From: Citrus sinensis | Taxonomy: Eukaryota > Streptophyta > Magnoliopsida > Sapindales > Rutaceae | Assembly (NCBI RefSeq): GCF_022201045.2 | Contig: NC_068564.1 | Location: 28,549,001 to 28,613,000 of the forward strand | Direction: 5' to 3' | Length of the DNA: 64,000 nucleotides | Part shown: one piece after another, positions 17,189 through 54,308 of the stretch | How the letters are laid out: every line of letters begins with the position of its first letter | Position numbering within the stretch: the first letter of the stretch is position 1 | The notes under the pieces: model-generated | The model's database searches: none | What the model was told of the DNA's origin: nothing | Seen by the model: the letters and a program-made list of their open reading frames with translations, nothing else | Translations under genes and position numbers: made by a program

Positions 17189-18239
17189 TTTGTGCGGCGT
17201 GTACGTATTATATTTACATTGATGGTAACTTGCTTAACTATGAACTTGGTTCGATGACAGAAGAGAGAGAGTACAACCCGCCATTAGCTAAAGAGTCTTT
17301 GCTTTTGTTGGGAGTGTGCTCTCTCTTCTCCTGTCATTGAGTTATTTTTATTTGTCATTTAATTATTTGTTATGCTTTGCAAATCTTTTTATGCGTAATT
17401 TAACTCTTAAAGATTTTGAAATTCATAATTTAATTTATTTATTTTTGGAAATTCATCAAGTCATTATCAAATTATTGTTATTCTTAAACTATATATGTAT
17501 TTTCATTGTTACAATTGTTTATTATTTTACATTTAATTAGATTTTTTTTTTTGCTCTTAATTATTGTAAATTTTAGTAGCTACATATCTTTAGGAAATGA
17601 AATTATCTACATATTCATAGGAAATAAAATTAATGTAGTTAATTCTCTTACATAATACATATACTTACAGAAAAACACATCTTCAAGTTTTTACTTACAG
17701 AATAACACATCTTCAACTTTCAAGATCAGCAAAAAATTGAACAACTAGTTGCTTGTTTTCTTAGTCAATTTTTATTATTCACCTAAGTCGTTTGAACCAC
17801 CATCGAAATCACCCTACTTGTTAAATAGGCTTTTTTTTCGACCAAAAATTTTAGAAGATCATACATTTAATTTCCTTCAATATTTCATTTGTGTATCTAT
17901 ATTTTTAATATTAAATTTATTAGGAGAATATAAAACAATGTTTATCGCATACCAGAGAAAAGAAAAAAGAAAAGAGAAGATTAATAGTGATACGGATTCT
18001 TTTAAAACATATTTATAGAAAAAGAACACATTTTCGTTGTTTCTTTTAAATTTTGTTCATACGTAATATAAGTGTGCCAAACGATATTTACATTAGTTTT
18101 ATTGACAAATGTAGGCGATGGGGGACCCTGATTTGTTTCTCAAAATCCTTCCTTCCTTCCCTACTAACAATACATGTCAAAATAACACAAAACTAAGATA
18201 AATCACATCAAAGTTAGTAATTAAATAATTAGAAGAATC

Positions 18240-19865
18240 AACAAAAATCAAAATATTTACCTCATAAACCCTTTCACCAGGGACCGAATCAAGTTACCGC
18301 CACCGCCAGTACCAACAACGAAAGAGCCAAACTGCCGACAGGAGAACTTTAGTTTGATCACCTTTTGGACTCCGACTGCTTAGTTCTTGCTAAAAATATA
18401 TGTGACATGAAATTGGGTAATTTGTAGACCTGGAGACAGGAACTGGACGAGGGTAAATCTGAATAATGTAAATTTTTCATGATATCATATGTTACAGGAA
18501 TGAATAATTATATGCCCTTGGTGCTTATCATGGTGCCCTCTTTCATATAAATTTTGTTAACTCTGGGGCTGATGCAATAAAACTGCTTGTCACTGATGTT
18601 AAGAAGCTCAGCAGAACAGGCTACTTGGTGGAGTTGGAGGGTGAATTGTTGCTTGTTCTACGATTCCAAGGATACTCTATATTTTTAGGTTTACAGGTAG
18701 GGTTGGCCAAGATTAGAGTGGATTGAGGCGAGAAATATGGGTGATAATGAAATATTGTTCGCTTGCCACTGGTCATTTTAGTAGTGGACCCGACTTTGAA
18801 GCAAATTGCATTTATTTCATTGATGATGAGTTTTAATCCCGCGAGTTCTTTTTGGAAATTGTAAGGGTGCATGTCTTCAACATTAAGACCCTTCGTTGTC
18901 AATCTTTTCACAAGGAGGCTCCCTTGCTTTGGGAAAATCTGCCGCGTCGGCAGAGAGTTGGACAAAAAAAAAAAATGTAAGTCATTTATACGTAACCTAG
19001 CAGTACAGATATACATGTATTTTGTCTATGCGTCTGCTTTATTTCTTTTAATAATTTATTAATTGCTTACAGCTTATATAAGCTGCATATACAGAAGTGA
19101 GATTGCAGAAGGGATAAAGTTGATCGACTCATCTCTGTCTCCTTAACTTTTAAAGATTTTATTATTAATTGTTTTGTCATTTGTGTGTCTCTCAATGGCT
19201 GATAAAAAGAGTCTCTCAAGTTAAGTTAAGATACTGTTTTTACTTTCAATAAGCCACCAATTTGTGCGCATTTATGTATTTGCTGAAGTGAATGCTAAAA
19301 CGAGCATAACATTCAGGTCTCGGAGGGCAGCAACACCTCTCTTACTTGACATTAATTATTAAGCATAAATAATTTATATATGGGTTTGAAATTTCAGTAT
19401 TGTCACGTTCTACCTGTATTGATTAGGTTTTAACAGATTTTGCTAGCAGGGCTTCAAAGAGAGAGGATGGTGATGATGCTCTGTGGACAATGCCTATAGA
19501 CAAGCGTTTCATTAAGATACTCTACAAAGCAACAAGATGGGAAATGCAATTAAACTTCAAATTTGAAGAGCATGGGTCGCATGGTAATTTTCAAATATCC
19601 TTTTTAATTTGTTTCCAAGTGAACAGGAAAATCCTAATGCAGAACAATTTGGCGAAAAGGGGCCTCGTTGTTATCATATGCTTAGTGAAATTTTTAGAAA
19701 CCCTTCTGCAAAACCATCTCACAACAATAATAAACTTTGTGAGAATTCAGTTTACTAATAAAGATACGAGGAAGTTTGTTGCGATGTCTCCTGCAAGGAA
19801 GATAGATATAGTGTGGCTTAATAATCTAAAACGAGTAAGGTATAATTTGAACTTGAATTTTGTTA
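18240..19865 (+). pseudogene. Decayed DUF295 + Myb/SANT-like gene (relic of the fusion family)
   Basis: A broken + strand relative of the minus-strand array at 40-54 kb. The DUF295 part is recognisable in pieces: YLINPFTRDRIKLPP (about 18254), YLVELEGELLLVLRF (about 18621) and FEANCIYFIDDEF (about 18798). Then a cag acceptor at 19449 is followed by GGCTTCAAAG (start of the SANT exon in the array), reading ASKRE...LWTMPIDKRFIKILYK. A further acceptor at 19628 starts ENPNAEQFGEKG..YHMLSEI, matching KNPLAKQFQNKG..YHLLDET of array unit 1. The end FVAMSPARK...WLNNLK matches the array's FVAMSNGRKRKWLHTLK. Several stops and frameshifts separate these blocks, and no F-box was found. Divergence shows it is older than the array. 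Confidence 0.7.
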
Positions 19866-35700: not shown

Positions 35701-38700
35701 GCAGTTGTGGCTTTTTAAGTGTCAGTGGGTGCCAACTAGTTGAGTCGGTAAAACTATTGTAATGAAAAAACAAAAGGTTTAGGGTTCAAACTCCGCTTTC
35801 ATCGTTAGGAGGGGATTGAGTTGTTAGGCTAAATGTGAATAAAAATTTAAAAAGAAAAATGAAAAGGAAAAATATTGTTTCGCAAACACTTACCACTATG
35901 GTTTGTAAGTTAAGATGATTTTTAACTATAATATTTGATGAAAACCTATATTACCATTTTTTAAAACTATTAACTTTAGAAGTATTCTATCCAACAATTT
36001 CAGCTTTCATTTTACAACAGCCATGGCTTTTAAGCCATAACACCACAATAGCAAAGGGAACCTAAGTTGTCTTCATAAATAAAATGATAGTAAACACACA
36101 GATGTGGCTTTACCCTGAAGCTTGGAGCAGGTGACACAGCATCAAATAGTTTACCTCCAACCTTTGTTTGCTTGAGCTCAGGCAATGAACCCACCGTGCC
36201 AGAGCCAAATCCCCTTCCAAAGGAAGCATAATTCGCTTCAATCTGCTGTTCACTTGATTCAAGACTACCTACATTGTCGCCAGTCTTACTAGATCTCCCA
36301 GCATAAGCAAGGGTACCTGCATGTGAGGACTCCCTCATAGAGCAAGGTTGTCGGACTGAATCTCGTGATCGCGTAATCCTGCCAGAAGAAATATTGCTGC
36401 TCCTTTCCTTGCTATCATAATTATGTGCTTTTGCTCCTTCCACTTCACAGCTTTCATTATCAAAATCAGCAGTTTCTACCAACTTTGATTCATGAATCTG
36501 GTTGGGTTGTAGGTGAAAAATCCCTACTGGAGATGATTTAGATCCTTCAGACACGAGCTGATCCACATGATCCATTTTGTCAACTGGTCTTCTATCCTTA
36601 TTTAATTGCACAACATCATCCTCCTGAGACAATCAAAAGTAGTGACATTCTACATCAGGCACCAAGTTATCTTCATAAGGAAACTGGCTGCAATTATGTG
36701 TGTGTGAGTGTGTGTGTGTGAGTGGCCTTACCCTCAAGGTTGGGGCAGCAGATACAGCATAATTTGGCCTACCACCAACCTTTCTTTGCTTGAGCTGATT
36801 TGATGAATTCACCATGCCAGAGCCAAAGGAATCAGAATCTTCAATCTGCTGTTCATTTAATTCAAGACAACATACATTGTTTTGATCCCTACTAGATTTC
36901 CCAGCAGAAGAAAGGCTATCCGCATGTGAGGACTCTCCCATAGAGCTAGGTAGTTGAACAGATTTTTTAGATCTTGTAATATTTCCACGGTAAATATTGC
37001 TACTCTTTTCCTTGCTCACGAGATCATGTACTTTTCCTCCTTCCACGGCACAGCTTTCATTATCAAAATCAGCAGTTTGAACCAATTCTGACCAACCAAT
37101 TTGATCAAACTCTAGGGAAGTGATCCCAGACCTCGTACATAGGCTAGAATTTACACAAAAATCATTCTCAAGTGATAAATAAATTTTCTCTGCTTTTGCA
37201 CTATTACGAGCCTCTAGAGCCCATTGCCTTGATTTTGATCTTTGAACCCTGGCCAATGATTGAAGTGGCTCAGGGTCAATGTCTGAAATTCTTGAACCTA
37301 TCTGATCTTGGGGAGATGCAGCACCAAAATCCATCTTGAGCACACCATTTGAGTCACACACAGTATCATTGACAGTAAACTGATGCAGATTAGACAGACC
37401 ATCTTCTGCGACTAATCCTTTGTTTGAAGCATGAAGTTCTTTGTTTGAAACATCTACCGGCTCTTCATTTTCATCCGTAACAGCCAGCTTATTGAAGGGA
37501 ACACATTTATAGCTGGAACGAGATGTCACAGGCTGCAGACCTAGGATTAGGGGTGAAATAAGCTCCTCCACACATGACTCTGCAATGATACCGAAGATTG
37601 TTAAGGAAAGCCAGCAAGATAACTCTTACCACTTATATCTATGGCAGCAACATGTAGTGGTATCTCTCATGGTAAGGTTGGGTCCAGTGAATCACCACTC
37701 TTATGGCCATCAAGTTCATATATTTTTTGCAATTTTAATTATCATGACAAATGCTAGAAATTACAATATTTCACAACATACTAAAACACGGTGCAAAAGC
37801 CTTCAAGTTCTCTGTCGTATGTTTTTTTTTTTTTTTGAATGACAAGCAATGATTTCTCAAGCACTATTTTATTTCTCCGTGGTAACATATCTTCTTTCTC
37901 TGATGACTACTTGAGGATTGATCTATTGGTGGATCACTTGATTGATTAACCCTACCCACCTACTTCTACTTGAGAATAAATCAAACATGGAATCACCTAG
38001 GTACTTCTTCATTATCATACTAAAATAATTCCATTGCTTGTTTTTAAGAGCAAAACTATTTTGAAATTGTGCTTTCAAAAGCACCAAAAATACTGTTAAA
38101 AAAAGGATTTAGGATGCAAAACTGACAACATAAAACACTTAAACGAACCATACCATTTTCCTTGCCATGGAATTCACTTAGATTTGCTTCTTCCACCTTA
38201 CAGCTTTCCTTACTAATATGAACAGATTCATCCAGTTCCAATTCTTGTACATGGTCATGCTGTACGGGAGCACTCTCAGAAACTGTAATTCCACCATACA
38301 AAACACCAGCATTATTCTCATCTTGTAAATTACTTTGAAATAATTTTGCACTCCTACGAAGAGCCAAAGCCCTTTGCCTTGACTTGGATCTTTGAAAGTT
38401 TTCCAGCGACTGGGCTGGCTCAGGAGAATCATTAGACAGTTTTTCAAATCCCTGATCCAGCAGTGATATAACATCATCAGAATCCCCCTTCTGAACGCCA
38501 TTTGAGGCACCTTCAACATCATTAACTGGAAGCTGAGGCGAAACAGACAATCGGTCTCCTGCATCAAAACCTTTAGACAAAGTGTGAACTTCTGTGAATG
38601 AATTAGCAGGAAAATCCCCTTTATCAGCTGGAACATCAGGCTTGTTGTAGAGTGAGCAGCAACTGCCAGAATATGGCACTGCCAATGGTGGACGTGGGAG

Positions 38701-39548
38701 TAAGAGCCCCGATATAAGTTCCTCCTTATTCAAATCTGCCATGACGTCAACAAAACAACTATAAATTAACCAATGTTATAAAAAATTCCCAGCAATCAAA
38801 AAATTTCAAGACACAATTGTTTATTATTTACCAAATTCGATACTGATCGGCAAAGAAAAGTAGAAAACATCAAATTTCAAATTTGTTGTAAATTCAACTA
38901 AAGCCTTAATAACAAAGTAAAAGGGTCCAGTGACATCAATTTTATTTACTCTTCAAACTATCAAGCTATGTTCAGTGTAAATACTTTAAATTATATGTGA
39001 CTAATCCTTTTCCTATTAAGTTATCAGTTTAATCGAACAAAAAGTAATGCAAAATTTCACCTCCTAAACACTACCAAAACAATGCCCTAAATATTTCTAC
39101 ATCCGAAACTCGACACTTCAACCATAAATTCTCAGTTTCAAGAGCCCAAAGCTTACTGATTACTCATTTTAAGAGGCAAAAAGAACTTAAATTTTGCTTT
39201 TATTTTCAAATTAACACTCAAATCCGAGCACAAACTACAAAATAATAATAATAAAGTTAAAAAAATGAAGATAAATTGGAGGAAGAAATGAAGAAACCTA
39301 AGCAGAAATTATTTAAAAAATTCCGAAACAATAGCAACAAATTGAATGGATTGAAGAAGAAAGATAACGGAAGAGGTGAAATTACCATTGGGAGGACAGG
39401 AAAAGAGCCAAGGAGGAGGGGCGATTCCGTCAATAAGACATTTGGAGGCGAGTTGATGATCGAAGAGAAGAGTCTGGCGTTTGACCTGGTCTTCGATCCA
39501 CTTCTTCCTCTCGAAGATCTGCACGAACAGCTTCTCTATCGTTCCCAT
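29718..39548 (-). CDS. WYR: Inner centromere protein (INCENP/WYRD), exon-expanded
   Basis: Scaffold of the chromosomal passenger complex; binds Aurora kinase through its IN-box. Fourteen exons, all phase-compatible: 39548-39386, 38735-38154, 37579-36732, 36623-36114, 35634-35128, 35051-34545, 34455-33949, 33840-33724, 33076-31624, 31296-30938, 30828-30649, 30472-30315, 29936-29845, 29758-29718; about 2007 aa (Arabidopsis At5g55820 is about 1800). N-terminus MGTIEKLFVQIFERKKW is the conserved plant INCENP start; an in-frame Met five codons upstream is possible. Residues about 1733-1851 form a highly charged K/E/R coiled coil or single helix (GKRDVKVKALEAAEAAKR). The IN-box is at about 1930-1985 (SYDVSPYKDSDNEEE, FIPSWASK). 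Exons 4-7 are near-identical-length repeats (170, 169, 169, 169 codons), and exon 3 ends in a fifth related unit. The short last exon is the least certain. Confidence 0.9.
33840..37150 (-). repeat. Tandem exon-intron repeats inside INCENP
   Basis: Exons 4, 5, 6 and 7 (510, 507, 507 and 507 nt), the distal part of exon 3 and the stub exon 8 (117 nt) are copies of one unit. The shared pattern includes (E/D)D(D)VVQ, DHV, FDxESC, KEKSSNIY, ITRSxSSV, AYAGRSS and LKQRKVG. Each unit ends in a xR|GTAAGG/GTAAAG donor and starts after tctcag. Intron bodies are also alike (tatgaagacaacttag). Exon starts are spaced 989, 583, 596 and 615 bp; the long first spacing is due to an insertion. Confidence 0.9.
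35690..36030. mobile_element. Compound insertion (MITE-like ends with a tRNA-type SINE inside)
   Basis: The intron between INCENP repeat exons 4 and 5 is about 390 bp longer than its sister introns. Inside, 35721-35862 has a pol III A-box-like TAGTTGAGTCGG (about 35738) and a B-box-like GGTTCAAACTC (35783-35793), then an A-rich tail: the layout of a tRNA-derived SINE on the + strand. The flanks (35690-35720 and about 35990-36030) carry related tggcttttTAAG phrases, perhaps an older host MITE. The boundaries are approximate. Confidence 0.45.
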
Positions 39549-40316: not shown

Positions 40317-42330
40317 TCATTTTAGAGTATGGAGCCACTTTCTCTTCCTTCCATTGGACATCGCAACAAACATCCTTCTCCAGTCTATACTAGTAAATTT
40401 CTCACAAGCTTTTACGTAGACATCATCGTCCAAATCGTTCATAGACTCCAATATTTGAATGCATTCTTCGATGGATGCATGTTCAAGAAAAACTGGAGAG
40501 CGTTCGTTTTCATTTCCTGATATTTGAGGTGTCTTTGATTTTTTGCTTGGACAAAGATTGTTTAGGTCGTTGAGAGAGCAGTGTCGCTTGTTTTTCACAA
40601 TGCTTTGTTTACCACCTTCAATGTCAAAGTACATGTTTGCCGCATCCAGAACCCCTCGAATTTTCAACTCTATCTTCGTATTATAGGATTGGGAGGATTG
40701 AATGTACGCAATAGTTTCATCAAGCAGATGATAATACTCGCATCCCTTATTCTGAAATTGTTTTGCTAAAGGGTTTTTCTGCACATTTAAAAGAATGATA
40801 AATTAATTAGATACTATCCAAAAACCATATATCTTAATCATATATAGGATGAGAGTAATTATAACCTTGATATAAGATTCCCAAACATCTTCATGTGCCC
40901 GAACTATGTTGGTCTTTGGATCCCAAGCCATGCCCGTATGTGCCAAAAGTTTTGAAAATTCATGATGTAACCTACACAAGTGATCGTATTTAGACTTCAA
41001 CTTAGAAACAGTATATCTCTTGCCAAATTCTTCAAACATATTATCTTCTATGGAAGTCCATGCCATTTCTTCCCAAGTTAAGGCTAGCAGTCCATTTTTC
41101 GCTACTTTGTGCAGTAGCTTAACGAAATGCTCCTCAATAATTGGCCATGGAGCAACATAATCAATTTGCTCATCCTTCGAACCCATGCTGCACAAAATAC
41201 AGCAAAATGTTACAAAATATATTTGGTCAGATATAAGAAATTAACTATGAATTTGTGACTTACAATTCTGCTGATTCAACTCTAAGCCAATTCGGTGGGA
41301 TTTTGCAAAATAAAGAAGAATGATAAAGAGTCTTATAATTATTGGTTCCCAAGTGATGGACAACCACATCTCGATTATGAGTAACGAAATATATGCAATT
41401 TTCTTCGAAGTCACCTCTAAACTTGCTAACACATAGCGATGTGGAGCTATGTTTTCCCAAGAAGATTGCATTAGGGCCGATATTTCTCACCTCAATCCAC
41501 CGTTTCCTGTGCCAATCCAACCTATAAACATCATATCTTTGACTTACTCGAACAAGTAACAATTCGCCCTTCAACTCGACGAAGTAATTATTTCCGTATG
41601 GTCCAGTAGAAGATACGGGCAATGAAACTGCTTCAACAGAACCAGAGCTAGAAAATTTTAAATGAAATATTTGACCCGCAAGATCGGCGTAAAATTCACC
41701 CTTAAAACAAATAGTATCACCCCAGTTGAAACCACCGTAGTTACATCTATGGATCATCATTACCGGGGTCCAAGTTTTGTCTCCTGGTCTACAGACGTAC
41801 AAATTAGTACCATCAATAGCAAGAACAACACATTTGGGATCCAAAGGGCTAGTTGATGTCACCACTCTCAAATCTTGTGGGTTGCAGAATGTCCCTAAAT
41901 ATGGTATCCTGATTTGATCTCTAGTGAAGGGATTCAGAAGGGATGGATTTTTTTTCCTGTCGAATGGAATTGTTAGCAACCAGCCGTCGGATGAACTCGA
42001 ACACCATCTTTCCTTCAATTGTGGAAGATATATTTGGTGAAGGTTCTTTGTTTGGGTGCTGAAGAGAGTGCAAGAGCAGCACTGTTTTTTATCATTATTC
42101 GATGATGCTGATGCTGATGATGATGATGATGATGAGAGCAATAGAAAAGGAGACTGCAGGGATGTAAGTTGGCGGTATAGAGTTCTGATGAGAGATCTCC
42201 ATGAAAGACAGACGGCTGCACATTGCGAGATATCTTCACAATCTGTGAGTTTTTGGAAGATTTCTGAAAGGAGTTCAATGGGAAGATCCGATGACCATGA
42301 CCTTCGTAATAACGGTTCTGCTGCTGCCAT
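40317..42330 (-). CDS. F-box-DUF295-Myb/SANT-like fusion protein, unit 1
   Basis: Three exons: 42330-41264, 41187-40866 and 40778-40317; introns of 76 and 87 bp. Exon 1 gives an F-box (about residues 13-57, LPIELLSEIFQKLTD, AVCLSWRSL) and a DUF295/KIB-type propeller (about 150-350, FVELKGELLLV, YRLDWHRKRW, ENCIYFV). Read on, exon 1 stops at SAEL-TAA, but that TAA is part of GTAAGT. Splicing GAA TT | C ATG GGT continues in frame into a Myb/SANT-like DNA-binding domain (IDYVAPWPIIEEHFVKLL, about 362-455). Exon 3 supplies the family's C-terminus (ASIEECIQIL, WRRMFVAMSNGRKRKWL). Exon lengths (1067, 322, 462 nt) fit one continuous frame of 616 aa. The F-box side suggests SCF ubiquitin ligase recruitment, the SANT side DNA or L10-type protein binding. 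If unspliced, two separate proteins result. Confidence 0.75.
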
Positions 42331-44035
42331 TGTTAATTATGATTGGATTGAAAACAATAAACCCTAAACCTAATATTTAAGTCAAGGCTTGACACGTGGG
42401 CTTATAAACAGTTGGATTCAATAAGTTTACATATGAGCTTATGAGCACTTGGAACTCTCTCCCCGTGCAGGAGAAAGCCTATGTGGATAGCTTTTACATT
42501 AGTTTTTTAACACCAATTTTCACATTAACTAATGCCATCTTATAATCTTAATTATTCATTCATTTTTTATCAACCATCCCCGATATTATTTTCATTAACT
42601 TGCTTGAATCTTAAAGAATATTTTTTCAGAAATTCAGAATTTGAACTCGACTCATATGAATAAAGAGAGAATTAAATAAGCATAGATAATTTTTCTTTAA
42701 AAAAAAATTAATGATAAAAGGAGAGATAAAACTTAGGATATCTAATGAAAAGAGGATCATATTTCAAAAAACAAACAAAATCAAATAATGAAATAAACAT
42801 GAATATATAATTAGGATATCTAATTCTCATGACCCCGATTTCAAGAGGAGAGCTCACATATTATTCATTATATGATGATCATCATCATCCGAATCGTTGA
42901 TAGCCTCCAATAATGTCTCTTCGATCAATTGATGCAGAAGATCTTGTTCTATTTTCTAATAGTGAACAAGCCAATGCGGTAAAGACTAACCAAACAATTG
43001 AAAACTACTGGCTGCTATATGCCAAGTAGAAAACACTTTTACGTTGATCAAATAGTGAACCCGAGCAATCTTCAACGAAATGAAATATTTGATGATTTTC
43101 TCTGAAAAGTCCGTTAAAAATATCCATTTCCAATCTCAAGAGATGTAGAATTGTGTTTACTTAATAGCAATGCATTATCACGCACCAATAATTTTCAACT
43201 TAATCCAAATTTTCCTTTGCCAATTCACCTTGTGAATCTCAATATGTTCGCCGAATTTCTTAACGAGTGACAACTCGCCCTTTTAACTCGACCAAGCTTG
43301 TCGTACAACCACGAGTCAGTACTTGAGCCTGAGTCCTTCCACATAAGACGGTGCCGGTCGGTGAAAGAGATTTGATCAAGTTGATTGTATTGATGATGAT
43401 ATAGGAGAGTCTTGATAAATATGGCTGTCTATCTCACCAGGATTTGAATCTAAATGACCAATTAAAAAAGAGTAGAGCTTGAGAGAGAGAAGCACGAGAG
43501 AAAGACGAGAGAATTTTGTCTTCTCTCTCTCTACCCACTCATTCTCTCTCTATCTCTTTTTTCATTATTTCTCTGGTCTTTCTCTCGTGTTTTTCTACAC
43601 CAAACATTTTTCATTAAAAAATATTATTTGAAACCATTCAGCTCTGTCATTAGGTATTAGTGTAGTTTTAAGAATACGAAAAAAAAAAGAGAAAAAAAAA
43701 TGGAATTACCATCCGTTAAATTATCATAAGCACGAAGGAGCATCATCATGTGTTTAACTTAAAAACAAGATTTGAATCTAAATTTCCATTAGGTTCATAC
43801 CGTTCATACAACTGAGAAGTACTTCAGTTCTGCACGGACACAGATTTCGGGGGTATGATAGGCAGCTCAAACCCAGCACCAAAACAGAAAGGTTCAAATG
43901 GGTGCAATCCCAATCATAAACAAATATAATTGTTTCCCCTAACAAACAAACAACGAAGTGCACTTGCAGTGCAAAGAACTGAAGAAACACCGCTGAAGCC
44001 AGGGAAGAATTTTTAAAGATGATTTTCTCCGGATA
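42331..44035. other. Intergenic with F-box relic and inverted repeat
   Basis: Promoter side of unit 1, then degraded sequence. 42960-43390 is a relic related to 48880-49210 (see separate entry). A pair of inverted arms (43491-43513 and 43569-43592, cacgagagaaagac) could form a hairpin with a 55 bp loop in a CT/GA-rich tract. Confidence 0.5.
42960..43390 (-). pseudogene. DUF295 F-box remnant in duplicated spacer
   Basis: The minus strand retains decayed DUF295 similarity around 43140-43320, the region corresponding to the LDWHRK and LVELKGEL blocks of the intact units. The surrounding text (accaaacaattgaaaactac; gccaagtagaaaacac) is matched at 48880-49210, downstream of unit 3. Too broken to model. 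Confidence 0.55.
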
Positions 44036-45347
<1,312 letters not shown>

Positions 45348-47565
45348 TCATATTAGACTATAAAGCCACTCTCTCTTGGTTGCATCCGATATCGCAACAA
45401 ACATTCTCCTCCAATCTACACTAATAAGCTTCTGACAACCTTTAATGTAGGCATCTTCATCCAAATCGTCCATAGCCTCCAAAATCTTAATGCACTCTTC
45501 GATGGATGCATCTTCAAAAACAAGAGCATGATGTTCTTGTTTTCTAAATTCTTCATTTGCTTCGGAGGATGTTTTACTAGTTGAATTAATCGAACTTTCG
45601 TAGTCGAACTGTCTTTGCTTTCGTTGTTGGGCAAGGATATCTTTTAGGTTGTTTAGAGAGCAATGTCGCTTGTTGTCGAAAATGCTTTCTACGCCACCTT
45701 TAATATCAAAGCACACCTCTGCAGCATCTGAAACTCCTCGGATTTTCAGATCAATCTTTGTTTCATAGGATTGAGAGGGTTGATGAGTGTGGGCAATAAT
45801 TTCATCAAACGGATGAAAATACTCGAATCCCTTATTCTTAAATCGCTTACCAAAAGGGTCTTTCTGTACATTTGAAAGAAAGAAAGAAATAAATAAAGAT
45901 GAATTAGGGAAAAAAAAAAACCATCACCATGATTGCATTTACATCAACGGTAATTAATATATATATGTATATACATACCTTGATATAAGATTCCCAAACA
46001 TCTTCATCAGCCCGAACTTTGTTGGTCTTTGGATCCCAAACCATACCCGTATGTGCCAAAAGTTTTGAAAATTCATGATGTAACCTACACAAGTGATCGT
46101 ATTTAGACTTCAACTTAGAAACAGTATATCTCTTGCCAAATTCTTCAAACATATTATCTTCTATGGAAGTCCATGCCATTTCTTCCCAAGTTAAGGCTAG
46201 CAGTCCATTCTTTGCTATCTTGTGCAGTACCTTAACGAAGTGCTCCTCAATAATTGGCCATGGAGCAACATAATCAATTTGATCATGCTTTGAAGCCATG
46301 CTGCACAAGGTATAGCAAAACGTTTTAAGGCCAATCCAAAATCGAATTAGTATCTCATTATTAATTAACACTTAATTTAAAAATACGTATTACAAATATA
46401 TTTTGTCATAAATTAAAAAAAGAAAAAGAAAAAGAAGCTGACATAATATGCAATACTGAAATTAAGAAAAGTAAGTTTTGATGACTTACATTTCTGCTGA
46501 CTCAACTCTAAGCCAATTCGGTGGAGTAAATGTCCAAGTCGATGAAAATTGATGAAGAATCTCATGACGACCAGTATCCAAGTCGTAGACAACCATCTCT
46601 TGATGGATGGAAATGAAATAAATGCAATTTGCTTTCAAAAATCCTGTAAAATCCGTAACACAAAGCGACGTGGAACCATGTTTTCCCAATAACAATGCAG
46701 TATTATTAGAGCCAATATTTTTCACCTTAATCCATTGCTTCCGGTGCCAGTCCAACCTGTAAACACGTACGCCAGATAGACTATAGTCTTTTCGAAACCG
46801 ATTTTCAATTTTTATTTGAACAAGTACCAATTCGCCCTTCAACTCCACTAAATAACTATTAAAGTCGTACACAACATAAGGTACGGGCAAATCTACAGCT
46901 TCGACGACGCCCCCAGAACCATTTACTTTTATATGAAATATTCGACACCCATATTCGGCATAAAATTCACCCTTATAGCAAACCGTATCACCCCAGCTGT
47001 GATTACAGACGCCTTTATAATTGGTCACCACCTTGGTCCAAGATTTGTCTCCTGGTCTGCAGCTGTACAACTTTTGTTCGTCAATGGCAAGGACCACACA
47101 TTCGGGATCCAAAGGACTGGTTGATGTGACCACTCTCAAGTCCTTTGCTTTTCCGGGCGATGATTCTACTAAATGTGGCGGTAACTCTACTCGATCTCTC
47201 GTGAAAGGATTTAGAAGGCATAGATTTTTTTCCCTCCTGAAAGGAATTATTAGCAACCAACCGTCGTGTGAACTCGAACACCAGCTTTCTTTTAATTGCG
47301 GAAGAAATATTTGGTGAAGTTTATTTGTTTGGGCGTTGAAGAGAGTGCAAGAAGAGCATTGGGATGATGATGAGAGCAATAGGAAAGGAGATTGAAGACA
47401 TACAAGTTGGCGGTATAGAGTTCTAAGGAGAGATTGCCATGAGAGACAGACGGCTGCACAGTGTGAGATATCAACGCAGTCAGTGAGCTTTTGGAAGATT
47501 TCGGATAGGAGTCGCATGGGAAGATCGGACCATGACCTAACTAGCATTGGTTCTGCTGCTGCCAT
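45348..47565 (-). CDS. F-box-DUF295-Myb/SANT-like fusion protein, unit 2
   Basis: Exons 47565-46490, 46300-45979 and 45863-45348 (1076, 322 and 516 nt); introns 189 and 115 bp; 637 aa. I start at MAAAEPML, which matches unit 1 (MAAAEPLL). An in-frame Met five codons upstream is possible. F-box near residues 12-56 (LPMRLLSEIFQKLTD). DUF295 blocks: LLNPFTRDRVELPP, WGDTVCYKGEFYAEYG, YLVELKGELVLVQ, KANCIYFI. The frame would stop at SAEM-TAA inside GTAAGT. Splicing GAA AT | C ATG GCT enters the SANT exon (ASKHDQIDYVAPWPIIEEHF). That exon is almost identical to unit 1 over its central part, suggesting recent duplication or gene conversion. The last exon carries FEDASIEECIKILEAMDDLDEDAYIK and ends WLYSLI. 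Fully open with no damage seen. Confidence 0.75.
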
Positions 47566-47619
47566 TATGAAGAAGGACACGCAACGTAAACAACAAACCG
47601 AAGATAGGGTTTTTAAGGC

Positions 47620-48117
47620 CCAAATATGCCAAATATTGGATCTTGAGTGGACACAGCTGATCAGTCAAACGTGTTCTCCTAATTCTAATCCTCCATTAAA
47701 CTCTACTGCAAACCCTGTAGCCGTCACTTTTGAACAACCCCAGTTTTTTCCTCCTAACTCTTGCCAAAATATGACAGATATAATCAATGGATCTTGGGGT
47801 TCCATTGCCACTGCTCCGAATAACAATTTTCCATTACACAGCTCTAATTCAAACCCTGCTGCCTCCACTCCAGAACTTCCTTCTTCTAACTCTCACCAAA
47901 ATACACAAAATATGATGGGTGGATCTTCGGGGTGCTCCAGCTGATTCAAATATCGATACTCCGAATTACTGCCCCAGTACACTTGCGGAACTAGCTAGAT
48001 CTGGAAAAATGGGTAAACGACGATACACAGCTGCTACACCAAGATCTCTTTGAAAACCTAGTTAAAATGTGGTTCGAAGCTCGCCCAATACAGCAATCAC
48101 CCAAATTTTGAGGCCTC
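47620..48117 (+). pseudogene. Unassigned Asn/Ser/Pro-rich coding remnant
   Basis: On the + strand, just upstream of unit 2, a frame reads LDLEWTQLISQTC, then Asn/Ser/Pro-rich text with two loosely repeated blocks (SxNSxQNMxxxxxGS) to a stop at 47944. Coherent peptide-like text continues in other frames (STLAELARSGKMGKRR; QLLHQDLFENLVKMWFEAR) to about 48117. It looks like the frameshifted 3' half of a regulatory protein gene, but I do not recognise the family. Confidence 0.35.
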
Positions 48118-49256
48118 CAAATTATAAGGGGACTTGCAAAAGGGGGAGGCGGAGGGTAGTTTGGTTTTTTAACTGAAGAGTCTAGAAGAACCCTGCTCCT
48201 TTTTTAGTATTGTGTTAGGGTTTTCCCTTTCCGATTTGGCTTTGAACTTGCCTGCTTGGTCAAGGCACCTGACTTGGTTGCTTTAGGGGACAAAAAATAA
48301 AAATTATAATCCCTCACTAGATTCAGTTTGTTTTTTATTACCTTCAAAAATGATTTTCGCAATTGTGCCATTGGGGTTTGAATCCGCTGCACCCAACAAA
48401 ATAAATCCACTCACAAGCATGTGTAAAACCCTATCCTCAACTTCATTCAGGAAATGAGTACTGCCCAAACACTCAAGATTTCACTGCATAATTTACAAGT
48501 TACATCCACGATAAAAATTTAAATAATATTATCCTATATCTTATATCATCATTATTGAATCAGAATAAGGATCCAAGCTGCTTGAACTCTGCAGAGAGTA
48601 CTCTTTGGTACCCTGCCCCAATGTTGGTGCTTGACAACACCAAGTTTCAAGAATTAATTAATGATTGCTACTATTATCGTTTCGCTTTCTGCTTGTGAGC
48701 GAGAGCCGCAATCGATGTGTGCCTGTTTTCATTGGTTCTCTCTTTTCCTCAAGAATATATGTTTCTAAATCAATCTCCAGTAAAATGATTATCATTTTAA
48801 TTGGAGTTAGAGGGATCAAAACCATGAAAATAACAATTAAATTTTAACTCAGCCAGTGCGTTGGAGTTTTCGGAATCAGTAAGTAAACTAACCAAACAAG
48901 TGAAAACTATTGGTTGCCAAGTAGAAAACACCTTTACTATTGATCAAGTAGTGAACCGGGGCAATCATGTATCAAGGGACACATAAGTGATAAGTGATTT
49001 GCTCTAAAAAGTCGATAATTAAAATATAGAATTTCCAAGTTAGTCGAATTTTTACTTTGCCAATTCAACTTGTACATCCAGCCACGAGTCAATGACTAAG
49101 CTTTGAGTCCTTCCACATATATAGTGTCGCGGGACCGGCTCAAGTCTATGTTTGAGAGCAATATGAAAGGTGGTAAAATAGATTTGAGTTGATTGCATCG
49201 ATGATGACACCGTGAGATATCAAAGGTTTGTAAAGATATATATGATTGGAAGAAAA
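48118..49256. other. Intergenic, contains duplicated spacer relic
   Basis: AT-rich. 48880-49210 matches the relic at 42960-43390 (shared gccaagtagaaaacacYttta and gagtccttccacat). No open gene. Lies between the unit 2 promoter side and the end of unit 3. Confidence 0.5.
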
Positions 49257-51370
49257 TCAATACCTCCAACGGGGACTTTTACAAGTTAGACTATAAAGCC
49301 AGTTTCTCTTCTTTGCTTCGGACATTGCAACAAACATTCTTCTCCAATCTATACTAATAAATTTTTCGCGAGCTTTAACGTGTACATTATCATCCAAATC
49401 GTCCATAGCCTCCAAAATTTTAATGCACTCTTCGATTGATGGATGATGTTCTTGTCTTCTGAATTCGTCATTTCCTCCCGGCAATGTTGATGTTTTAGCA
49501 CCTTTAATTTCGAAGTACACATTTGCTGCGTCTGAAACCCCTCGAATCTTCAACCCTATCTTCGTATTATAGAATTGAGAGGATTGAGTGTATGCAATAA
49601 TTTCATCAACCAAGTGATAATACTCGAATCCCTTACTCTTAAATCGCTTACCAAAAGGGTGTTTCTGTACATTCGAAAGAAAGCAAGATGAATTAGAAAA
49701 AAACCATCACCATGATTACATCAAGGGTAAATAATATATATATACATACAGACCTTGACGTAAGATTCCCAAACTTCTTCATCTGCCCGAACTATGTTGG
49801 TCTTTGGATCCCAAACCATACCCGAATGTGCCAAAAGTTTTGAAAATTCATGATGTAACCTACGGAAGTGATCATATTTGGACTTCAACTTAGACACGGT
49901 GTATCTCTTACCAAATTCCTCGAATATGTTATCGTCGATGGTAGCCCATGCCCTTTCTTCCGCCCAAGTTAAGGTTAGAAGCCCCTTTTCTGCTACTTTG
50001 TGCAATACCTTAACAAAGTGCTCCTCAATGATTGGCCATGGAGCAACATAATCAATTTGATCATGCTCTGAAGCCATGCTGCACAAGGTATAGCAAAACG
50101 TTTTAAGGCCAATCCAAAATCGAATTAGCATCTCATTATTAATTAATACTCAGTTTAAAAACGCATTATAAATATATTTTGTCGTAAAAAAAAAAACAAG
50201 AAAGAAAGAAAAGTAGAAAATATGCGAAGAAAAGTAATTTGCCACTTACATTTTTGCTGATTCAACTCTAAGCCAATCCGGTAGAGTATTTCCCCAGAAC
50301 GAAGAAAATTGATGAAGAGTCTCGGAGTGATTCGTTTCCAAGTTATAGACAACCACTTCTTGCTTATAACCGTCAACGTAATAAATGCAATTTGGTTTGA
50401 AGTATCCTCCAAAATTTGTAACATCAAGCGTTGTGGAACCATGATTTCTTAATAAGATTGCAGCGGGGCCGATATTTTTCACCTCAATCCATAATTTCCT
50501 GTGCCAGTCCAACCTAAAAACATGCACATCAGATGCGCTTGCACTACTACAGTTTTCAAGGATTCGATGGCCAGTCAGTGTTTGAACAAGTAACAATTCC
50601 CCATTCAACTCCACTAGATAATTATCTGAGGCTGAGCCGTAGGCAATGTAAGGAACGGGCAATTTTATAGCCTCGGCGACCCCAGAACCATTCAATTTTA
50701 TATGATATATTTGACACTCGTATTCAGCATAGAATTCACCCTTAAAGCAAATTGTATCACCACAATGGCGATAATGTTTGTGACTGGTATTGTTGATGAC
50801 CACCTTGGTCCAAGATTTGTCTCCTGGCCTGCAGATGAACAAGTTTCCGTTTTCAAAAAGAAAAAAAACGCACTCGGGATCCAAAAGGCTGGTTGATGCG
50901 AGCAGTCTTATCATATCCGGACCTTCGTCGGAGTCGAATTCTATAAGATGTGGCGGTAACTTGATTCGATCTCTCGTGAAAGGATTCAAAAGGCATAGAT
51001 TCTTTAACATGCTAAAAGGAAGCACTAGCAACCAACCGTCATATGAGCTCCAAGTGGACGTGCTTTCTTTCAGTTGAGGAAGAAATATTTCGTGGCGTTC
51101 GTGTGTTTGCGGGTTGAAGAGAGTGCAAGAGCACCTGCTGCGTGCAAGTTATGATGCTGATGATGATTCGAACAATAGGAAAGGAGACTGAAGAGATTTA
51201 AGTTGACGGTAAAAATTTCTGATGACGGATCGCCATGAAAGACAGACGGCTGCACACTGCGAGATATCATTACAATCTGTGAGTTTTTGGAAGATTCCGA
51301 ATAGGAGTTCCACGGGCAGATCCGATGACCATGATCTTCGTGATAATAATGCTTCATCTGGTGCAGCCAT
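49257..51370 (-). CDS. F-box-DUF295-Myb/SANT-like fusion, unit 3, with one in-frame stop
   Basis: Exons 51370-50250, 50078-49754 and 49664-49257 (1121, 325 and 408 nt); introns 171 and 89 bp, same junction phases as units 1 and 2. Start MAAPDEALLSRRSW. F-box LPVELLFGIFQKLTD; DUF295 blocks LLNPFTRDRIKLPPHL, YLVELNGELLLVQ, VFRLDWHRKLW. The SANT exon has one extra codon (TWAEERAW). The last exon lacks the middle linker of the other units and ends differently (WLYSLTCKSPRWRY). A single TAA at 51151-51149 interrupts the frame in the Ser-rich linker after the F-box; beyond it the same frame runs open (CSCTLFNPQTHERHE...). So it is either a very young pseudogene, a base error, or a gene making a short F-box peptide. 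The SAKM stop again lies in GTAAGT. Confidence 0.6.
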
Positions 51371-51777
51371 TGAATGAAGAAGGATGGCCTGCAACACAAC
51401 TTATAAACCCTAATTAAACATTCCAGATTAGGGTTTTGACTTTTGAATGGTTTCTCATGTGCGCGCGCGTGTGTATATATATGTGTGTGAATTATTATAG
51501 GAATTATTAATTAAATTTTTTTTTTATAACTTTTGAACTTTTTATATAAAAATGATTAATTGATATCGTGATTTTTATAACTTGCTGTGTTAGCTAGCAT
51601 TCTATCACAACCCATCGTCATATACCAAGAACCCAACTCGCAGAAATGCATGCAGGCAATAATAATACGAACATAATTTCTCACAAGTAAAACGCATCTA
51701 GCAAATGAAAATTTAAATTGCATACTTCTGTGACATAATTAAAAAATAAGACAGTCATAATAATCAAAATAAAATTT
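51371..51777. other. Intergenic, unit 3 promoter side
   Basis: Contains the alternating tract at 51459-51489 and AT-rich DNA up to the decayed end of unit 4. Confidence 0.45.
51459..51489. repeat. Alternating GC/GT/AT tract upstream of unit 3
   Basis: An uninterrupted alternating purine-pyrimidine tract (gcgcgcgcgtgtgtatatat and on) about 90 bp upstream of the unit 3 start. A comparable cacacgcgcgtatac tract lies at 54463-54493, upstream of unit 4. Such tracts can adopt Z-DNA; here they are probably inherited promoter sequence. Confidence 0.7.
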
Positions 51778-54308
51778 ACCTATGGACTATTAAGTAATTG
51801 TCCTCCAATCCGTATTTAACAATAAATTCTCGAGTGGGACTATTTGAACCCACTAAATTACTCACTAAACCCATTTGCTAAATAAACCCAACCTTAAATT
51901 TTAAAATTTTTTATTTTACTCAATAAACCTACTTAAATATCCTTACTAAACCCAATTTTTATAATAATATTGATTTTACTCATTAAACCCATATGATAAA
52001 TGTTTCTTTGAAACATTTTTTTTTTTGGTCCTAAGAAAGTTTTTTCAAAAAAAGTTTTTTTTTTTTAAAGAAAGTTATGCAAGGAATATGATTTCATAAT
52101 GCATCATGTTGGTGGTTTTCAACAATATAATTTTCATTTATCGATTCAGAAGTTTTGAAATGATGAAAGCTCAACTAAATGAGTCAAAATGGATGCTTCT
52201 CCATTGTTCATGTTTGTAATCATCAAGTTATGTCAGCAAGCTTGATTTCTTAGTTAAGAATTGCATATTTACAATGATTGTTCATGAATTTTTCATGTGA
52301 TAGAGCAATACCATGAGAAAGAAACATTTAAAGAGTGAATAAACATAAAAATATTTTAAAAATATATGATTTGACAGAAGAATCACACATCTTGATTGAT
52401 TAAGATTTAATGAAAATATGATTAGGGTTTACTAAAATTATGTTGAATATGAAGATGGGTTGAAAGAGTAAAAATTTTATTTTTTTCTTTTTTATTATAT
52501 TTTAATGTCCATAACTATAATTTAATTCAGGGGTGTTTTAATCACAAATTTTTTTTTCAAAAGTGGGTTTAGTGAGTAATTTGGTGGGTTCCAATAGCTC
52601 CACCCTAAATTCTCACAAGCTTTAACGTAGACATCCCAAATCGCCCCTATATAACCTCCAATATTAATTTGTTACCCTCTTCAGTTGACGAAATTGTTCA
52701 TTTCCTCCAAAGGAGGTTTTATGAATCTATCACTGATGTTTGAGGTGTCTTTGATGCTCTGTTATTGGCAATGTTTTCTTCACCATCTTTAATACCAAAG
52801 TACACGTTGATGCTCTTACATGTCTGTAGGTAATACTTTCATTAAGCAGAGATGATAGTATTTGAATCCCTTATTCCGAAATCGCTTTCCAAAAGGATTT
52901 TTCTGCACAATTGAAACAGAGATGATTTAGAAAGTTATCATGATGATGCTCTGTTATTCCTAAACATCTTCATCATCTGCATGCCTAAACTCTGTTGGTC
53001 TTTGGATCCCAAGCAATGCTCGGATGAGCCAAAGTTTTGAAAATTCACGTAGTAACCTACATATAAGTGATCATATAACTTAGACAATGTATATCTCTTA
53101 CCGAATTCTACAAATAATTCATATTTCGCAACTTTGCGCAGTAGCTTAACAAAGTGCTCCTCGATAATTGGCCATGTAGCAACATAATCAATTTGATCAT
53201 CCTTTGAAGCCATGCTGCACCCAAAATATAGCAAAATATTCTAAAACCAATGCCAAGTCGAATTAGTACCATCAGTATATTACTACTGAATAATTTTCAA
53301 ATGCATTACAAATATATGCCAGAGAAAAGCAATAGTTCACTTACATTTCTGCTGATGATTCAAGTATAAGCCACTTCGTTGGAGTACTTGTACAAATCGA
53401 AGAAAGTTGATGAAGAATCACATAATGATTCTTTTTCCAAGCGATAAACAACAGCTTTTTGACAAGGAAGTAATGAAATAAATGCAATTTGCTTTGAAGT
53501 CTCCTCCAAGCGATTTGGAACCATGTTTTTCCCAATAAAATTGCATTATGGGCAATATGTTTCAGCTCAATCCAATCTTTCCCCAGCCAGTCCAACCTGT
53601 AAATGCATACATTAGATATACAATCGTTTGCAGGAATTCGACTTTCAACGCTTACTTGAACAAGCGACAATTCACCCTCCAACTCCACGAAATAATTTTT
53701 CTCACCGCAATTCGCCGGAACTATTAAATTTTAAATGATATATTCCACTCCCACATTCAGCCTAAAATTCACCGTCATAACAAATAGCATCACCCCAACT
53801 GCGACTCCAGTCCGCTATTATTGGTATAATCAGTCGTCTAAGTTTTATATTGTCATTTGTGAATATCAAGAACGACACATTTAGGATCCAAAGGGCTGAT
53901 TGACTTGACCACTCTTAAGCCCTGTGCTGTTCCGAGCTTGATTCGATCTCTCGCGAAAGGATTTGAAAGGTATAGATTCTGTTTCCTGTCGAAGGGCAGT
54001 GTTAGCAACCAGCCGTCGTATGAAGTCGAAGCACACTGGCTTTCTTTTAATTGCGGAAGAAACATTTGGTGATGTTTATGTGTTTGGACGTTGGAAGAGA
54101 GTGCAAGATTCTGATGATGATTATGAGAGCAATGTAAAAAGGAGATTGAAGAGGAGATGAAAGTCGGTGGTAAAAAGTTCTGATGACAGCTTGCCATGAA
54201 AGACATGCATACTGCTGCACGGTGCTAGATATTCTCAGTCTGTGAGTTCTTCGAAGATTTCGGATAGGAGTTCGATCGGAAGATTAGTGTTGGTTCTTCT
54301 GCTGCCAT
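51778..54308 (-). pseudogene. F-box-DUF295-Myb/SANT-like unit 4, decayed
   Basis: Begins MAAEEPTL at 54308. The F-box segment is shifted: LPIELLSEIFEELTD is readable only in another frame and ends at a stop. DUF295 pieces remain (LFLPQLKES..., SNPFARDRIKL at about 53940, MELEGELSLVQV at about 53688) but with deletions and shifts. The SAEM/GTAAGT junction (53345) and the SANT acceptor (53214, C-ATG-GCT) are still intact. The SANT exon has an internal deletion and frameshift. Exon 3 (from about 52905) is degraded and is split by a Mutator-like MITE at 51832-52605; its far end continues at 51778-51831. Non-functional, but the join sites prove common ancestry with units 1-3. Confidence 0.85.
51832..52605. 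mobile_element. Non-autonomous Mutator-like MITE inside unit 4
   Basis: 774 bp. Terminal inverted repeats align over 42 bp with 5 mismatches (GAGTGGGACTATTTGAACCC at the left; the right end is the complement of GGGTGGAGCTATTGGAACCC). Both continue with AAATTACTCACTAAACCCA. The flanking 9 bp target duplication TAAATTCTC is perfect (51823-51831 and 52606-52614). No coding sequence. The target is the C-terminal exon of the fourth F-box-SANT unit. Confidence 0.9.

What the first reader, a model, noticed from the sequence alone, without database searches (positions are those of the whole stretch)
40317..54308. Tandem array of a new-looking F-box-DUF295-Myb/SANT fusion gene
Four adjacent units keep the same order: F-box + DUF295 exon, then a Myb/SANT-like exon, then its C-terminal exon. 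Exon 1 always ends in phase 2 at a GTAAGT donor, and exon 2 always starts at cag|C-ATG-G with 1 + 3n bases. In the three units where both junctions sit in readable frames (units 1, 2 and 3) the join is exactly in frame. Phase agreement at both junctions in three units is hard to explain by chance. I know of F-box/DUF295 proteins and of LIMYB-type Myb/SANT proteins separately, but not of a family joining them. Such a protein could target a ubiquitin ligase to DNA-bound or L10-like partners (inference).
Basis: partly seen in the sequence, partly recalled or inferred. Interest (0 to 1): 0.88.

Follow-up and report, generated by a model that had tools for sequence, protein, structure and literature searches.

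The report
Plant F-box/KIB–Myb/SANT fusion genes
A plant genome carries a small, partly decayed family of genes that appear to weld a ubiquitin-ligase adaptor (F-box plus KIB propeller) to a Myb/SANT-like domain, which could let the ligase act on chromatin or on Myb-like proteins, but no transcript has yet shown that the two halves are really made as one protein.

Summary
Four minus-strand units carry F-box + KIB1-4 propeller (PF03478, formerly DUF295), a GTAAGT donor, a cag|C-ATG-G acceptor and a Myb_DNA-bind_3 exon; a last exon follows. The join is in frame in 3 of 3 readable units, giving 616 and 637 aa in units 1 and 2. Corrections: unit 3 has an in-frame stop after codon 73, unit 4 is broken in both halves, and the matching phases are inherited once. 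New evidence for one gene: a gap of only 76 nt in unit 1; similar synonymous divergence of first and last exons (0.55-0.61, 0.49-0.58); purifying selection on both halves; and an old relic on the other strand at 18.2-19.8 kb with the same order. AAATGTAAGT occurs four times in the window, all at this boundary. My paper searches listed no such fusion. Most likely these are SCF receptor genes with an added Myb/SANT arm; whether it binds DNA is open. Without RNA or another plant genome the fusion is inferred.

The parts
41264..42330 (-). Unit 1 exon 1: F-box + KIB1-4 beta-propeller (355 codons + 2 nt)
   Evidence: PF12937 1.9e-9, PF03478 1.6e-42, scored in the joined 616 aa reading
41188..41263 (-). 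Unit 1 intron 1, 76 nt, GTAAGT...tgcag, GC 0.26
40866..41187 (-). Unit 1 exon 2: Myb_DNA-bind_3 (SANT-like)
   Evidence: PF12776 2.3e-14
40317..40778 (-). Unit 1 exon 3: C-terminal exon with stop
46490..47565 (-). Unit 2 exon 1: F-box-like + KIB1-4 beta-propeller
   Evidence: PF12937 5.9e-6, PF03478 6.7e-45, in the joined 637 aa reading
46301..46489 (-). Unit 2 intron 1, 189 nt
45979..46300 (-). Unit 2 exon 2: Myb_DNA-bind_3
   Evidence: PF12776 1.2e-14
45348..45863 (-). Unit 2 exon 3: C-terminal exon with stop; no Pfam family at E up to 1
50250..51370 (-). Unit 3 exon 1: F-box region + KIB1-4 propeller, in-frame stop at codon 74 (51149-51151)
   Evidence: PF03478 9.5e-42 for the part after the stop; the part before it was not scanned
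50079..50249 (-). Unit 3 intron 1, 171 nt
49754..50078 (-). Unit 3 exon 2: Myb_DNA-bind_3
   Evidence: PF12776 3.3e-16
49257..49664 (-). Unit 3 exon 3, shortened inside and with an altered C-terminus
53345..54308 (-). Unit 4 exon 1, pseudogene (frameshifts and stops)
   Evidence: PF03478 6.2e-9 in one open piece
52600..53344 (-). Unit 4 intron 1 (53344-53215, donor and acceptor kept) and degraded exons 2 and 3
   Evidence: no Pfam hit in the one exon-2 piece scanned
18237..18982 (+). Older relic on the opposite strand: KIB1-4 propeller remains ending in AAATGTAAGT
19447..19831 (+). Same relic: SANT exon start (C-AGG-GCTTCAAAG, ATG changed) and last-exon remains from 19627
42880..43296 (-). Fragments of a further degraded copy (propeller piece 43296-43139, last-exon piece near 42925-42880)
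48887..49207 (-). Fragment similar to the degraded copy near 43 kb; not matched by the unit queries themselves
   Evidence: 73.6% over 159 columns, E 5e-21; absent

Best explanation
Each unit is one three-exon gene. A complete F-box + KIB1-4 propeller protein is spliced, at what would otherwise be its end, onto a Myb/SANT-like (LIMYB-type) protein whose own start codon sits one base after the acceptor. The product would be an SCF substrate receptor: the F-box binds SKP1/cullin 1 (family knowledge), the propeller and the Myb/SANT plus C-terminal region choose the target or the place, and the target is ubiquitinated. If intron 1 is retained, the TAA inside GTAAGT ends the protein and gives a plain F-box/KIB protein, so one gene could make both forms. 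The fusion arose before the present array: an older diverged copy lies inverted about 21 kb away. Units 1 and 2 look intact, unit 3 has one stop, unit 4, the relic and the 43-kb fragment are dead. Shown: anatomy, frames, domains, selection on both halves, the relic. Inferred: splicing, SCF assembly, role of the Myb/SANT arm.
For: In-frame join in 3 of 3 readable units and GTAAGT / cag|C-ATG-G in 4 of 4. F-box-like (PF12937), KIB1-4 propeller and Myb_DNA-bind_3 pass their Pfam cut-offs in the joined reading of units 1 and 2. The gap between halves is 76, 189, 171 and 130 nt, 42-47% T and 24-31% GC, like intron 2 (46-50% T, 23-29% GC) and unlike the exons (38-42% GC). The four donors rank 14-57 of 703 GT sites and the four acceptors 3-16 of 785 AG sites by a recalled Arabidopsis-like weight matrix. 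Exon 1 and exon 3 have similar dS over the three unit pairs (0.55-0.61 and 0.49-0.58), as expected if the halves duplicated together; omega is 0.40-0.50, 0.17-0.26 and 0.36-0.49 for exons 1, 2 and 3, with synonymous excess at p < 0.015 in 9 of 9 comparisons, which are not independent. The inverted relic keeps propeller, donor, SANT start and last exon in order. AAATGTAAGT occurs at 4 places in the window, both strands (units 2, 3, 4 and the relic), all at the exon 1 end; GGCTTCAAAG at 3 (units 2 and 4 and the relic), all at the exon 2 start. With the array masked, the relic hits remain (best E 3e-10); reversed proteins gave one chance hit elsewhere (E 0.49) and none there.
Against: No transcript, and no relative outside the window: no genome is held, and bacterial, archaeal and viral contigs gave none. 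The donor lacks the usual G at -1, and the weight matrix is not selective: its best acceptor lies inside unit 3's exon 1. The propeller is complete before the junction, as a stand-alone F-box/KIB protein would be, and the SANT exon has its own ATG with A at -3 and G at +4. Intron 1 is well conserved between units 2 and 3 (82%, against 58-68% for the other pairs; 98% in the 100-nt window across the acceptor), which gene conversion would explain but so would a promoter. Variant poly(A)-signal-like hexamers occur in intron 1 of 4 of 4 units, although AATAAA itself does not. Unit 1 lacks AAATGTAAGT and units 1 and 3 lack GGCTTCAAAG. The relic's SANT exon is weak as protein (E 0.23 and 0.36 in a 4-kb search; no such Pfam hit). 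Most recognisable copies are damaged.
Confidence: 0.75

Rival explanations
1. Two separate neighbouring genes, an intronless F-box/KIB gene and a LIMYB-type Myb/SANT gene with its own promoter or a 5'UTR intron, duplicated together as a pair.
For: Each half could stand alone; the SANT exon starts with ATG in a good context in 4 of 4 units; the gap is conserved between units 2 and 3 and holds variant poly(A)-like hexamers.
Against: The gap is 76 nt in unit 1, which leaves almost no room for a terminator and a promoter; donor and acceptor are kept in 4 of 4 units, and the donor also in the old relic; the ATG is lost in the relic while flanking bases remain (weak, as the relic is a pseudogene).
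Confidence: 0.15
2. A decaying cluster with no function left: the fusion is real as a gene structure but the genes are on their way out. This can be true together with the fusion model.
For: Unit 3 has a stop and unit 4 is broken; the 18-kb relic and the 43-kb fragment are broken; exon 1 omega is 0.40-0.50; unit 4 carries a transposon-like insert.
Against: Units 1 and 2 keep open frames of 616 and 637 aa, and exon 1 lengths differ by multiples of three (1067, 1076, 1121 nt); synonymous excess in 9 of 9 exon comparisons, although this averages over the whole past of each pair.
Confidence: 0.2
3. The fusion is real, but the Myb/SANT arm is a protein-binding or bait module (for example for other LIMYB-type proteins) rather than a DNA tether. 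A variant of the best explanation, not exclusive of it.
For: The SANT exon has net charge -2 to -4 in units 1-3, and its third-helix position where I recall Trp in the family reads Tyr in 3 of 3 units (placement by eye). In the Harbinger-derived ALP2, which lacks three Trp needed for DNA binding, the authors think DNA binding unlikely and show protein interactions (PMC7282668, passages).
Against: Two Trp positions (W14, W43/44) are kept and the domain passes the Pfam cut-off in units 1-3. Overall charge does not decide DNA binding.
Confidence: 0.45

Closest known systems
F-box / KIB1-4 beta-propeller (DUF295) proteins, e.g. Arabidopsis KIB1
   Same: Same two domains in the same order, matching positions 1-240 and 1-242 of the 242-position PF03478 profile in units 1 and 2; KIB1 is reported to ubiquitinate BIN2 and to act with cullin 1 (PMC12111011, passages).
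   Different: Here a Myb/SANT-like exon and a C-terminal exon follow in frame. F-box surveys of poplar and soybean list DUF295 but no Myb partner in the passages seen; the 2011 survey across plants has no word beginning with Myb or SANT in its main text (its supplementary tables were not seen).
LIMYB-type Myb/SANT-like proteins (Myb_DNA-bind_3, PF12776)
   Same: Same domain, with a following exon that by eye resembles the C-terminal half of such proteins (recalled). LIMYB binds RPL10 and represses ribosomal protein genes (PMC5452134, passages).
   Different: Stand-alone in LIMYB (recalled); here downstream of an F-box/propeller. No test of RPL10 binding.
NLR immune receptors with integrated Myb_DNA-bind_3 domains
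   Same: Shows that this Myb/SANT-like domain gets joined to other plant proteins: listed for Fragaria vesca and Zea mays NLRs (PMC4759884, table passage).
   Different: Partner is an NLR, not an F-box protein.
Domesticated Harbinger Myb proteins (ALP2, HDP2)
   Same: Myb-type domain that serves a chromatin complex (PMC7282668, passages).
   Different: Separate proteins, not fused to a ubiquitin-ligase adaptor; descent of this exon from a transposon was not tested.

Membership tests
F-box/KIB1-4 (DUF295) proteins | N-terminal F-box | tested here: met
   PF12937 above cut-off in units 1 (37.6 vs 24.3 bits) and 2 (26.4 vs 24.3); PF00646 above cut-off in unit 1 only (29.3 vs 20.5; unit 2 16.2)
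F-box/KIB1-4 (DUF295) proteins | KIB1-4 beta-propeller | tested here: met
   146.1, 153.9 and 143.6 bits in units 1-3, cut-off 27.4
F-box/KIB1-4 (DUF295) proteins | Assembles into an SCF ligase | not testable with these tools
   Needs SKP1/cullin pull-down
LIMYB-type Myb/SANT-like proteins | Myb_DNA-bind_3 domain | tested here: met
   54.5, 55.5 and 60.5 bits in units 1-3, cut-off 23.6
LIMYB-type Myb/SANT-like proteins | DNA binding by the domain | not testable with these tools
   Sequence is equivocal: net charge -2 to -4, two Trp positions kept
LIMYB-type Myb/SANT-like proteins | Interaction with RPL10 | not testable with these tools
   No usable structure: models had mean pLDDT 62.2 and 46.2
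F-box-KIB-Myb/SANT fusion gene | In-frame splice between the halves | tested here: inconclusive
   Sites and frame fit in 3 of 3 readable units; no transcript evidence
F-box-KIB-Myb/SANT fusion gene | Same order in a copy outside the array | tested here: met
   Relic 18237-19831, plus strand; its SANT part is weak as protein
F-box-KIB-Myb/SANT fusion gene | Present in other species | not testable with these tools
   No plant genomes held; (bacterial, archaeal and viral contigs) found none

The most novel reading that the evidence does not exclude
A lineage of chimeric ubiquitin-ligase receptors that carry their own Myb/SANT-like arm, so that ubiquitination is steered to chosen chromatin sites or to Myb/SANT (LIMYB-type) regulators, with retention of one intron switching between the chimera and a plain F-box/KIB protein.
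Probability: 0.3. Interest if true: 0.68.

Novelty: new variant of a known kind. Interest (0 to 1): 0.5.

Why it matters
F-box/KIB proteins and Myb/SANT-like proteins are both large plant families whose targets are mostly unknown (recalled). A natural fusion of the two suggests that the partners meet, and gives a direct handle: what the Myb/SANT arm binds is a candidate place or substrate of the ligase. It would also be a clear case of domain capture across a splice site, with the donor overlapping what reads as the stop codon of the first half.

Tried and rejected
Own-genome search for PF12776: no genome held. Relatives in genome contigs (exon 2) and viral contigs (exon 2, exon 1): 41, 6 and 20 stretches matched a pattern, 0 confirmed. 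AlphaFold on exon 2 (3 sequences) and exon 1 (2 sequences) gave mean pLDDT 62.2 and 46.2, too poor to use, so no fold search was run. PDB sequence search of the 637 aa reading: one hit at E 0.89, taken as chance. Identity outside the units falls to about 0.3-0.6 in a whole-unit alignment; inserts disturb that alignment, so I do not use it as evidence that only the gene is conserved. AATAAA was found after the stop of unit 1 but not in the 201 nt after units 2 and 3, so poly(A) signals decide nothing. The matching phases of three units were rejected as independent evidence. A transposon origin of the SANT exon is possible but was not tested. 'Unit 3 is intact' was rejected. One search searched F-box/KIB1/DUF295/tandem without a Myb term and is not counted as a search for the combination.
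Full report
What is there. The window is plant DNA. Above the array lie exons of a CAF1-family gene (PF04857, two pieces; PARN-like by recall), and at lower coordinates an L-type lectin receptor kinase and an NF-YB-type gene. In units 1 and 2 the three exons join in frame into 616 and 637 aa, and the joined readings carry F-box-like, KIB1-4 beta-propeller (PF03478, the former DUF295; the older name is recalled and in the finding) and Myb_DNA-bind_3, each above its Pfam cut-off (the other F-box model, PF00646, only in unit 1). Unit 3 has the same exons and an in-frame join, but a stop after 73 codons of exon 1. Unit 4 is broken, yet keeps donor and acceptor.

Why one gene. First, the space between the halves is 76, 189, 171 and 130 nt and has the composition of an intron (24-31% GC, 42-47% T), like intron 2 and unlike the exons. 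Second, the donors rank 14-57 among 703 GT sites and the acceptors 3-16 among 785 AG sites of the array. The weights are recalled, the -1 base is not the usual G, and the matrix is not selective: the best acceptor of all lies inside unit 3's exon 1. Third, both halves are about equally old: dS over the three unit pairs is 0.55-0.61 for exon 1 and 0.49-0.58 for exon 3. Exon 2 is lower, 0.12 for units 1-2 and 0.38-0.41 for the other two pairs, with windows identical between units 1 and 2 and one 98% alike between units 2 and 3, which looks like gene conversion. Fourth, both halves show an excess of synonymous change (9 of 9 comparisons among units 1-3, p < 0.015; codons with gaps or stops left out; unit 4 not used).

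The old relic. Searching the window with unit 1 and 2 proteins found a diverged copy on the other strand at 18.2-19.8 kb. Its propeller remains (best E 3e-10) are followed by AAATGTAAGTCAT, shared letter for letter with unit 2 at the same boundary, then, about 470 nt on, by the SANT exon start with the ATG changed, and by last-exon remains (protein E 0.006, DNA E 7e-11). On both strands AAATGTAAGT occurs at 4 places (units 2, 3, 4 and the relic; unit 1 differs by a base) and GGCTTCAAAG at 3 (units 2 and 4 and the relic; not units 1 and 3), all at the expected boundaries. With the array masked the relic was still found; the other hits then had E 0.44 or more, and reversed proteins gave one hit elsewhere at E 0.49. 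The SANT part of the relic is weak as protein (E 0.23 and 0.36), and no Myb/SANT domain is reported in its open frame. The linkage of the halves is therefore older than the array, and so are the donor and the exon 2 start.

The three matching phases come from one ancestor. A phase-2 GTAAGT always contains an in-frame TAA, so the ORF end at that place says nothing by itself for or against splicing. As a rough scale, 36 of 7626 stop trinucleotides lie within GTAAGT and 23 of 2572 ATGs have such an acceptor within 5 nt upstream, unit sites included; with one third for the frame this is a small chance for one ancestral event, but the pattern was chosen after seeing it.

How it may work. F-box/KIB proteins are SCF substrate receptors; KIB1 ubiquitinates BIN2 (PMC12111011, passages). 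LIMYB, a Myb protein of the SANT-like type, binds RPL10 and represses ribosomal protein genes (PMC5452134, passages). A chimera could bring the ligase to DNA or to LIMYB-type proteins, or use the arm as bait. The net charge of -2 to -4 and the Tyr in the third helix (position by eye) speak mildly for a protein-binding arm; two kept Trp positions for a DNA-binding fold. Both predicted structures were too poor to help.

Novelty. One search found 0 papers but its phrase probably misses the spelling with a slash; one search found 0; two searches listed 10 of 10 and 7 of 7; two searches listed 30 of 63 and 15 of 68. I opened passages of five papers for this and of three for background. The listing shows two papers with all three terms; in both, DUF295 and Myb/SANT-like appear as separate genes or domains. 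F-box surveys of poplar and soybean show no Myb domain partner in the passages seen, and the 2011 survey across plants has no word beginning with Myb or SANT in its main text; the eggplant and wheat surveys were listed but not opened. Unreviewed gene models in databases may well hold such proteins; none could be searched. The same Myb/SANT-like domain is known as an insert in NLR receptors (PMC4759884), so its capture by another protein has precedent.

Verdict. Observation confirmed with corrections; fusion gene likely (about 0.75), function inferred, a new variant of a known kind of ligase receptor.

Noticed in passing
18237-19831 (+ strand): Old diverged copy of the F-box/KIB-SANT unit in inverse orientation, about 21 kb from the array.
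   Followed up: yes
51823-52614: A 774-bp insert in unit 4's last-exon region, with long inverted ends (83% over 53 nt) and a 9-bp direct repeat TAAATTCTC on both sides (read from the ends printed), like a non-autonomous Mutator-type element (type recalled).
   Followed up: partly
about 43990-44970 (- strand): Apparent pseudogene of a proteasome alpha subunit (PF00227, 5.4e-16 for the open piece 44320-44754; limits by eye) between units 1 and 2.
   Followed up: no
45979-46400 against 40866-41187 and 49754-50180: Patchy near-identity in the SANT exon and adjoining introns between units 1 and 2 and between units 2 and 3, suggesting gene conversion centred on the SANT exon.
   Followed up: partly
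51389 and 54325: Strong acceptor-like sites (rank 2 and 6 of 785) 16-18 nt upstream of the F-box ATG in units 3 and 4, possibly a 5'UTR intron.
   Followed up: no
42880-43296 and 48887-49207 (- strand): Two further fragments related to each other; the first holds a propeller piece and a last-exon piece.
   Followed up: partly
30884-38775 (- strand): Long gene with repeated exons of similar wording, by eye INCENP-like; no Pfam hit in the four pieces tried.
   Followed up: no
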